IMG/VR virus record: IMGVR_UViG_3300025111_000052
Coordinates: 88,035 to 152,034 of that record
Length of the DNA: 64,000 nt
From: a virus
Direction: 5' to 3' (one strand)
A program made the position numbers and the translations under genes. This document shows positions 45,045-45,776 of this stretch, one piece after another. The first letter of the stretch is position 1; each line of letters opens with the position of its first letter. The notes under the pieces are model-generated. The model searched no databases. It saw only the letters and a list, made by a program, of their open reading frames with translations, and had not been told where the DNA came from.

Positions 45045-45776
45045 TTACCGCCAGGCCTGTAACTTTATTCTGACTTTCTTTATTATGTTGTGCGCCCAAC
45101 TTGCTGAGCTATATCCGTTTTCTATGCTAATTTCCTTAAAACTTTTTCCGTTGTTAAGACCTTCGACCACGATAGCTTCTTCCTCTGTTAAAAGCTGTTG
45201 TATATCCATGAGGTCCATAGGATCTTCGACCTCATGGACTGAGCAGTATTCATTTACAGTTATATCTGTTGGTAATGTGTAAGCCCTTTGTACCAATTCT
45301 GAATAAGGGATAGTAGCCCTCTCTGCAGCATTACTTAGTTTTAAAAATAAATCGGAGCATGGCATATTTTCAGTATAAAAAACACTTTCTTTTCCGTAGA
45401 AAAGAAGGTTTGTTACTTTATCCTCTGCTATGCCATTAGATAGTAAACAAACATTTAGCCTGTTTAACAAACTACTTGTTTTCTTAATATATGATGGTAT
45501 AACAACAATAGAAGAAAACTTTCTTATGTATTCATGTAAAGAATCTTTTATTTTACGCAACGCAAATTGTTTAAAATTGTCATTTCTTGTCGGATCAAAA
45601 TCTTTTTTTGCTATTGCTAAGCCTAACAAAGCTTCGCTAAACAAGTCATTACTATCAAGTCCTGTTGATTTGACGTATGAATTAACGATAGAACATAATA
45701 AGGGTTTATACTCATTATATAGTTCTTCTGCTTCTTCTTTGCTGTCGGCTAAGAAAGCTTTTAATAGTTTTCCCAT
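45045..45776 (-). CDS. sigma70-family-like transcription factor, 243 aa
   Basis: Residues about 20-85 resemble sigma region 2 (DLFSEALLGLAIAKKDFD, FALRKIKDSLHEYIRK), with VVIPSYIKK resembling region 3.0. The last 50 residues resemble region 4, a helix-turn-helix in which LTEEEAIVVEGLNNGKSFKE leads into YSSASWAHNIIKKVR. The middle is divergent. It may direct host RNA polymerase, or the phage's own RNA polymerase at 60.2 kb, to phage promoters; which one cannot be told. Confidence 0.75.
   Translation of the reverse strand: MGKLLKAFLADSKEEAEELYNEYKPLLCSIVNSYVKSTGLDSNDLFSEALLGLAIAKKDFDPTRNDNFKQFALRKIKDSLHEYIRKFSSIVVIPSYIKKTSSLLNRLNVCLLSNGIAEDKVTNLLFYGKESVFYTENMPCSDLFLKLSNAAERATIPYSELVQRAYTLPTDITVNEYCSVHEVEDPMDLMDIQQLLTEEEAIVVEGLNNGKSFKEISIENGYSSASWAHNIIKKVRIKLQAWR

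What the first reader, a model, noticed from the sequence alone, without database searches (positions are those of the whole stretch)
45045..45776. Phage sigma-like factor that may pair with the phage RNA polymerase
The window encodes both a sigma region 2/4-like protein and a complete two-barrel RNA polymerase. Single-chain two-barrel polymerases are not known to use sigma70-type factors, whereas host polymerase is. Either this phage switches host polymerase with the sigma and uses its own enzyme for another gene class, or the pair work together, which would be new. Several well-spaced sigma70-type promoters suggest early genes use the host enzyme.
Basis: inference. Interest (0 to 1): 0.7.

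Follow-up and report, generated by a model that had tools for sequence, protein, structure and literature searches.

The report
Phage sigma factor beside phage polymerase
An uncultivated large phage and its distant relatives carry both their own one-piece RNA polymerase and a bacterial-type sigma factor, two tools that surveys of large phages have found apart; most likely the sigma redirects the host's polymerase, but a sigma-dependent one-piece viral polymerase, which would be new, is not excluded.

Summary
ORF 45045-45776 (minus strand) is a genuine 243-aa sigma70-family protein (region 2 Pfam E 1e-10; whole-protein NCBIfam match over its cut-off). ORF 60235-63651 is a single-chain two-barrel RNA polymerase with intact catalytic motifs. 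The window is the end of a 152-kb virus record. Ten other contigs encode this polymerase (37-48% identical to the window's). A sigma ortholog is present in nine of these eleven phages, always beside the same RuvB-like AAA gene, with sigma identity as low as 18%. It is absent from one two-member subclade that keeps the polymerase. Strict host-type sigma70 promoters are far above chance (21 against 1.8) but confined to the replication/metabolism module. They are absent from the structural module, so a second transcription system is needed. Sequence comparison suggests that the polymerase keeps a short clamp-helix hairpin at the place where sigma region 2 docks. It lacks the flap-tip helix where region 4 docks, while the sigma keeps region 4. 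I favour the sigma redirecting host polymerase (0.55) over a sigma plus phage-polymerase holoenzyme (0.30). Published surveys describe phage polymerases and recognisable sigma factors as alternatives, so the conserved pairing is a new variant.

The parts
45045..45776 (-). Sigma70-family factor, 243 aa
   Evidence: Pfam PF04542 1.2e-10 over cut-off; TIGR02937 over cut-off; orthologs in 8 other contigs
45519..45722 (-). Sigma region 2 (residues 19-86)
   Evidence: Pfam match 19-86; profile alignment to RpoD regions 2.1-3.0
45057..45200 (-). Sigma region 4-type helix-turn-helix (about residues 193-240)
   Evidence: TIGR02937 runs to residue 240; Sigma70_r4 found in 3 of 9 orthologs, best 3.1e-7, but not by Pfam in this member; alignment A5
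60235..63651 (-). Single-chain two-barrel RNA polymerase, 1138 aa
   Evidence: Pfam Rpb2_6 and Rpb1_2; 11-member alignment
62245..62628 (-). Beta-type barrel (residues 342-469) with lysine motif KLTNLSANKG
   Evidence: hhalign against bacterial beta, probability 96%, E 2.8e-9
61168..61413 (-). Beta-prime-type barrel (residues 747-828) with LDFDGD; the DFDGD codons at 61207-61221
61528..61641 (-). Putative short clamp-helix hairpin (about residues 671-708), after a lid-like segment
   Evidence: sub-profile hhalign against bacterial beta-prime gives this register, but probability only 3.8%; inference
45791..46771 (-). RuvB-like AAA ATPase, upstream neighbour of sigma in all nine sigma-bearing phages
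   Evidence: Pfam RuvB_N 8.9e-20; synteny
43429..44832 (-). CCA-adding tRNA nucleotidyltransferase, downstream neighbour, conserved in several relatives
44843..45031 (-). 62-aa zinc-finger-like protein between sigma and the CCA enzyme
   Evidence: weak dksA/traR zinc-finger match 0.0032, below cut-off
29816..29844 (-). Extended -10 sigma70-type site (TTGACA-17-TATATT), the only strict minus-strand site in the window not inside a selected gene
14270..14298 (+). Extended -10 sigma70-type site (TTGACA-17-TATATT), inside a gene

Best explanation
The protein is a phage-encoded sigma70-family factor (regions 2 and 4, no region 1) that binds the host's core RNA polymerase and redirects it to a phage promoter class the host sigma does not read. 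The host holoenzyme first transcribes the replication and metabolism module from ordinary TTGACA/TATAAT promoters. The phage's own one-piece polymerase transcribes another gene class, probably among the structural and minus-strand genes that lack such promoters. Shown: both proteins are encoded, both are conserved together in a divergent phage lineage, and host-type promoters are confined to one module. Inferred: which core enzyme the sigma binds, which genes it serves, and when.
For: Bona fide sigma70 family. Region 4 is retained, in some relatives near-canonical (Sigma70_r4 3.1e-7), and bacterial beta has the flap-tip helix that receives it. In the phage polymerase only about 60 residues separate the NFEDSI-like motif from the conserved lysine segment, with no counterpart of the flap-tip helix. 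Host polymerase appears to be used: strict sigma70 promoters 18 against 0.92 expected in the plus-strand replication/metabolism module of G000, 19 against 1.63 in G001 and 13 against 1.15 in G012. The structural modules have none or background (0 v 0.67; 1 v 0.80), so a promoter switch is needed. Two relatives keep the polymerase without detectable sigma, so the polymerase does not strictly depend on it. Recognisable sigma homologs of other jumbo phages are held to act on host core polymerase (PMC7598289, PMC7824862).
Against: Surveys describe jumbo phages with recognisable sigmas as lacking their own polymerase, and polymerase-encoding ones as lacking sigmas (PMC7824862, PMC7598289, PMC2147016); a sigma for host core should not co-occur so regularly with this polymerase. 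In our scans, full-length orthologs of this sigma came only from polymerase-bearing contigs or near-identical copies of the window. No sigma-specific promoter motif was found.
Confidence: 0.55

Rival explanations
1. The sigma is the promoter-specificity subunit of the phage's own single-chain polymerase: region 2 docks on the clamp hairpin and together they form a two-protein holoenzyme for late genes.
For: Both genes co-occur in 9 of 11 phages, with polymerases down to 37% and sigmas down to 18% identical to the window's. The sigma has one fixed place beside the RuvB-like gene. The polymerase appears to keep a lid and a short helical hairpin where sigma region 2 binds bacterial enzymes (weak). 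AR9 gp226 and phiKZ gp68 are sigma-like subunits of phage multi-subunit polymerases (PMC9209446). The structural module lacks host promoters.
Against: Sigma undetected in G006 and G012 although the polymerase and the flanking block are present. No flap-tip helix in the polymerase although the sigma keeps region 4. Residues that contact sigma in bacterial clamp helices are not evidently conserved in the phage hairpin (reading). No specific divergence of the hairpin in sigma-less enzymes: z at most 1.65, sigma-positive controls reach 2.18.
Confidence: 0.3
2. The sigma does something else in late transcription: a T4 gp55-like late factor coupled to the phage-encoded clamp, a factor shared by both polymerases, or a decoy that displaces the host sigma.
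For: The record encodes DnaN-like and DnaX-like proteins (read from the translations) as well as this sigma. The tryptophans of region 2.3 that read TATAAT are replaced in the alignment to RpoD, so promoter choice should differ from the host's.
Against: No gp33-like protein was looked for; no direct evidence.
Confidence: 0.13
3. The sigma match is spurious or the gene is decaying.
For: Region 4 in this member is under Pfam's threshold.
Against: Open, conserved and full length in nine divergent phages; several independent family matches over cut-off.
Confidence: 0.02

Closest known systems
Sigma factors of jumbo phages without their own polymerase (group 2 of Iyer et al. 2021, PMC7824862; PHROG_351)
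   Same: Sequence-recognisable sigma70 family, phage-encoded
   Different: Those phages encode no RNA polymerase; here a single-chain polymerase is conserved in the same genomes
Single-chain two-barrel phage polymerases: YonO, crAss-like phi14:2 RNAP, P23-45 gp64
   Same: Both barrels in one polypeptide
   Different: No sequence match of this family's profile to P23-45 gp64 or phi14:2 RNAP at useful E-values; this family is recognised by Pfam cellular polymerase models; no sigma partner is reported for the others in the papers read. YonO itself was not compared
AR9 gp226 and phiKZ gp68, promoter-specificity subunits of jumbo-phage nvRNAPs (PMC9209446)
   Same: Sigma-like protein that would give a phage polymerase its promoter specificity
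   Different: They belong to multi-subunit polymerases and have no detectable sequence similarity to sigma; ours is plainly sigma70 family and its partner is unknown
T4 gp55 and SPO1 gp28/gp34 type factors (from general knowledge)
   Same: Phage sigma-like factors that switch host core to later promoters
   Different: Those phages have no polymerase of their own

Membership tests
Sigma70 family | Region 2 fold recognised by curated models | tested here: met
   PF04542 1.2e-10 and TIGR02937 1.2e-13, both over cut-off
Sigma70 family | Region 4 helix-turn-helix | tested here: met
   TIGR02937 covers residues 15-240; Sigma70_r4 in 3 of 9 orthologs; the window protein alone is below Pfam's threshold for r4
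Sigma70 family | Binds core RNA polymerase and gives promoter specificity | not testable with these tools
   needs biochemistry
Two-barrel DNA-dependent RNA polymerase, single chain | Both barrels with DxDGD and the two basic residues in one polypeptide | tested here: met
Two-barrel DNA-dependent RNA polymerase, single chain | Template-dependent RNA synthesis | not testable with these tools
   needs biochemistry
Sigma-dependent (holoenzyme-forming) polymerase | Clamp helices for sigma region 2 | tested here: inconclusive
   register found, probability only 3.8%; structure prediction switched off
Sigma-dependent (holoenzyme-forming) polymerase | Beta flap-tip helix for sigma region 4 | tested here: not met
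   no counterpart in the alignment to bacterial beta
Sigma-dependent (holoenzyme-forming) polymerase | Sigma always present with the polymerase | tested here: not met
   absent from G006 and G012, though both records may be incomplete

The most novel reading that the evidence does not exclude
A single-chain two-barrel viral RNA polymerase that forms a holoenzyme with a bona fide sigma70-family factor: a two-protein sigma-dependent transcription machine, and an evolutionary link between cellular holoenzymes and stripped-down phage enzymes.
Probability: 0.3. Interest if true: 0.9.

Novelty: new variant of a known kind. Interest (0 to 1): 0.57.

Why it matters
How single-chain two-barrel polymerases find promoters is open: the YonO paper says it is unknown whether host or phage factors are needed (PMC5467207). 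Surveys describe large phages as having either their own polymerase or recognisable sigma factors. A lineage that has kept both makes the question directly testable with two purified proteins. If the pair works together, it gives a two-protein model of sigma-dependent initiation and bears on whether sigma predates the multi-subunit enzyme. If not, it shows a phage running three promoter systems in one infection.

Tried and rejected
De novo promoter motif search by k-mers and EM on three genomes: found ribosome-binding sites, tRNA T-arms and, in G001, the sigma70 motif; no sigma-specific or polymerase-specific motif. Structural operons have very short intergenic gaps, which limits this. Pattern scan of 84,980 bacterial/archaeal genomes for the polymerase: none. 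INPHARED: no relative of the polymerase, only partial matches to the sigma. Distant RuvB-like relatives: neither the sigma nor the polymerase found. Test of hairpin divergence in sigma-less polymerases: negative. A fully obligate sigma-polymerase partnership: rejected as stated because G006 and G012 lack the sigma at its usual locus, with nothing detectable in the 228-kb G012 record. A tree-correlation test was considered and dropped as powerless with nine taxa.

Full report
WHAT IS THERE. The ORF at 45045-45776, minus strand, is a real sigma70-family gene of 243 aa. Region 2 matches Pfam at 1.2e-10. NCBIfam's sigma-70 superfamily model matches over its cut-off across residues 15-240. PHROG_351 names it a phage sigma factor. 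A profile of the window protein and its ortholog in G001 aligns to E. coli RpoD through regions 2.1 to 3.0. It is the only region-2 match in the record. The window is the last 64 kb of a 152,034-base IMG/VR virus record; I read the other 88 kb too.

THE POLYMERASE. ORF 60235-63651, minus strand, 1138 aa, holds a beta-type barrel (residues 342-469, Rpb2_6, over cut-off) and a beta-prime-type barrel (747-828, Rpb1_2, just under cut-off) in one chain. A short query on the LDFDGD segment brought in contigs with full-length relatives. The alignment has 11 members at 37-48% identity to the window's, with catalytic residues kept. All 11 match both Pfam models. The family profile does not match P23-45 gp64 or the phi14:2 crAss-like polymerase at useful E-values. 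It was not found in 84,980 bacterial/archaeal species genomes by pattern scan, nor in INPHARED.

CO-OCCURRENCE. In eleven phages with this polymerase (window, G001, G004-G012), a sigma ortholog is detected in nine: the window, G001, G004, G005, G007, G008, G009, G010, G011. In each it lies directly beside the same RuvB-like AAA gene, apart from an inserted HNH-type gene in G007. Sigma identity to the window runs from 36% down to 18%. G006 and G012 form a subclade (71% identical polymerases). They keep the polymerase and the RuvB-like gene with its upstream neighbours, but the sigma is absent at that locus, and nothing is detectable in the 70-kb and 228-kb records by profile. The records are not known to be complete. 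Four contigs brought in by weak RuvB-like matches (26-29% identical) have neither gene at the sensitivity used, and one unrelated sigma-bearing contig lacks the polymerase.

HOST PROMOTERS. A strict search (TTGAC[A/T], 16-18 nt, then a TATAAT-like hexamer with at least 5 of 6) found 21 sites in the record against 1.8 in shuffles. By module: replication/metabolism plus strand (37.6-102.7 kb) 18 against 0.92; structural plus strand (1-37.6 kb) 0 against 0.67; RNAP/sigma minus-strand block 3 against 0.35, two of them inside genes. The relatives agree: G001 has 19 against 1.63 on its replication side, G012 has 13 against 1.15 in replication and 1 against 0.80 in its structural module. The labels 'structural' and 'replication' rest on my reading of the translations and on ortholog order. 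I conclude that host sigma70 polymerase probably serves the replication/metabolism genes and that structural genes need another system. That system could be the phage polymerase, the phage sigma on host core, or both together; no second motif was found.

WHICH CORE ENZYME? Bacterial sigma holds core at two main sites: region 2 on the beta-prime clamp helices, and region 4 on the beta flap-tip helix (established knowledge). I fetched 80 bacterial rpoC loci, most with rpoB, and aligned profiles. For beta, the alignment is good (96%, E 2.8e-9). Between the phage WEDQLMMD (bacterial FEDSI) and the VALTRKLKDGVKLTN segment there are about 60 residues, against roughly 200 or more in the bacterial sequences used, and no counterpart of the flap-tip segment [20 protein letters not shown]. 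For beta-prime, the sub-profile alignment is weak (3.8%), but it reproduces the register expected by eye. IPxxxLRKxWRHxTGKxGLSD lines up with PPDLRPxVxLDGGRFATSD (lid), followed by a hairpin of about 34-38 residues where bacteria have about 44, then KKGDLSVYGMAVRYPFSAKAV with [22 protein letters not shown]; the rudder is missing. The docking place for region 2 may therefore exist and that for region 4 appears not to, yet the sigma keeps region 4. This leans towards host core. A test for special divergence of the hairpin in the sigma-less polymerases was negative. Structure prediction, which would have helped most, was not available.

LITERATURE. Iyer et al. 2021 (PMC7824862) report no sigma factor in jumbo phages with multi-subunit polymerases, and sigma factors in all of group 2, which lacks polymerases. 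Sokolova et al. 2020 (PMC7598289) say that jumbo phages without polymerases usually encode recognisable sigmas. Hardies et al. 2007 (PMC2147016) note the lack of recognised sigma factors in 0305phi8-36, which has a single-chain polymerase. AR9 gp226 and phiKZ gp68 are structural sigma relatives without sequence similarity to sigma (PMC9209446). The YonO paper leaves open whether extra factors are needed (PMC5467207). Only open-licence papers were searched, so earlier reports of such a pair may exist elsewhere.

VERDICT. Observation confirmed; interpretation partly supported. The pairing is conserved and, against the papers read, unusual. Host switching is my first choice (0.55), a sigma plus single-chain holoenzyme the second (0.30). 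I rate it a new variant of a known kind.

Noticed in passing
window 40724-42109 (-) and 42632-42748 (-): A Ro60/TROVE protein (PHROG_850, 1.6e-40) lies just downstream of a non-coding stretch of about 1 kb that holds a Y-RNA-like candidate (YrlA, RF02553, E 1.3e-5, below gathering score) and further similar-looking segments: a likely phage Ro60-Y RNA system.
   Followed up: partly
window 3407-3477 (+): A tRNA with anticodon CUA (called tRNA-Pyl by ARAGORN, also an Rfam tRNA), a possible amber suppressor; six more tRNAs are called elsewhere in the record.
   Followed up: partly
window 8251-9825 (+): A P-loop protein seems interrupted by an intein after GTHG; the helicase of the relative in L005 also looks intein-bearing.
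   Followed up: no
window 10955-14572 (+): A 1205-aa hybrid sensor kinase (periplasmic sensor, PAS, histidine kinase, receiver, read by eye), unusual for a phage.
   Followed up: no
window 23728-27852 (+): Three proteins of RCC1-like repeats nearly in tandem, probably tail-fibre or adhesin proteins.
   Followed up: no
window 47955-57380 (-): A block of ATP-grasp, glutamine amidotransferase-like and amidoligase-like genes, conserved in the relatives; phi14:2 (Crassvirales) has a similar ATP-grasp/amidotransferase group (best match 7e-6).
   Followed up: partly
L049 (G012) 13689-14351 and L010 1-1270 (record position 80416-81270): A PEP-CTERM-like protein and a CxxCH-containing (cytochrome-like) protein, hinting at a Gram-negative, respiratory host.
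   Followed up: no
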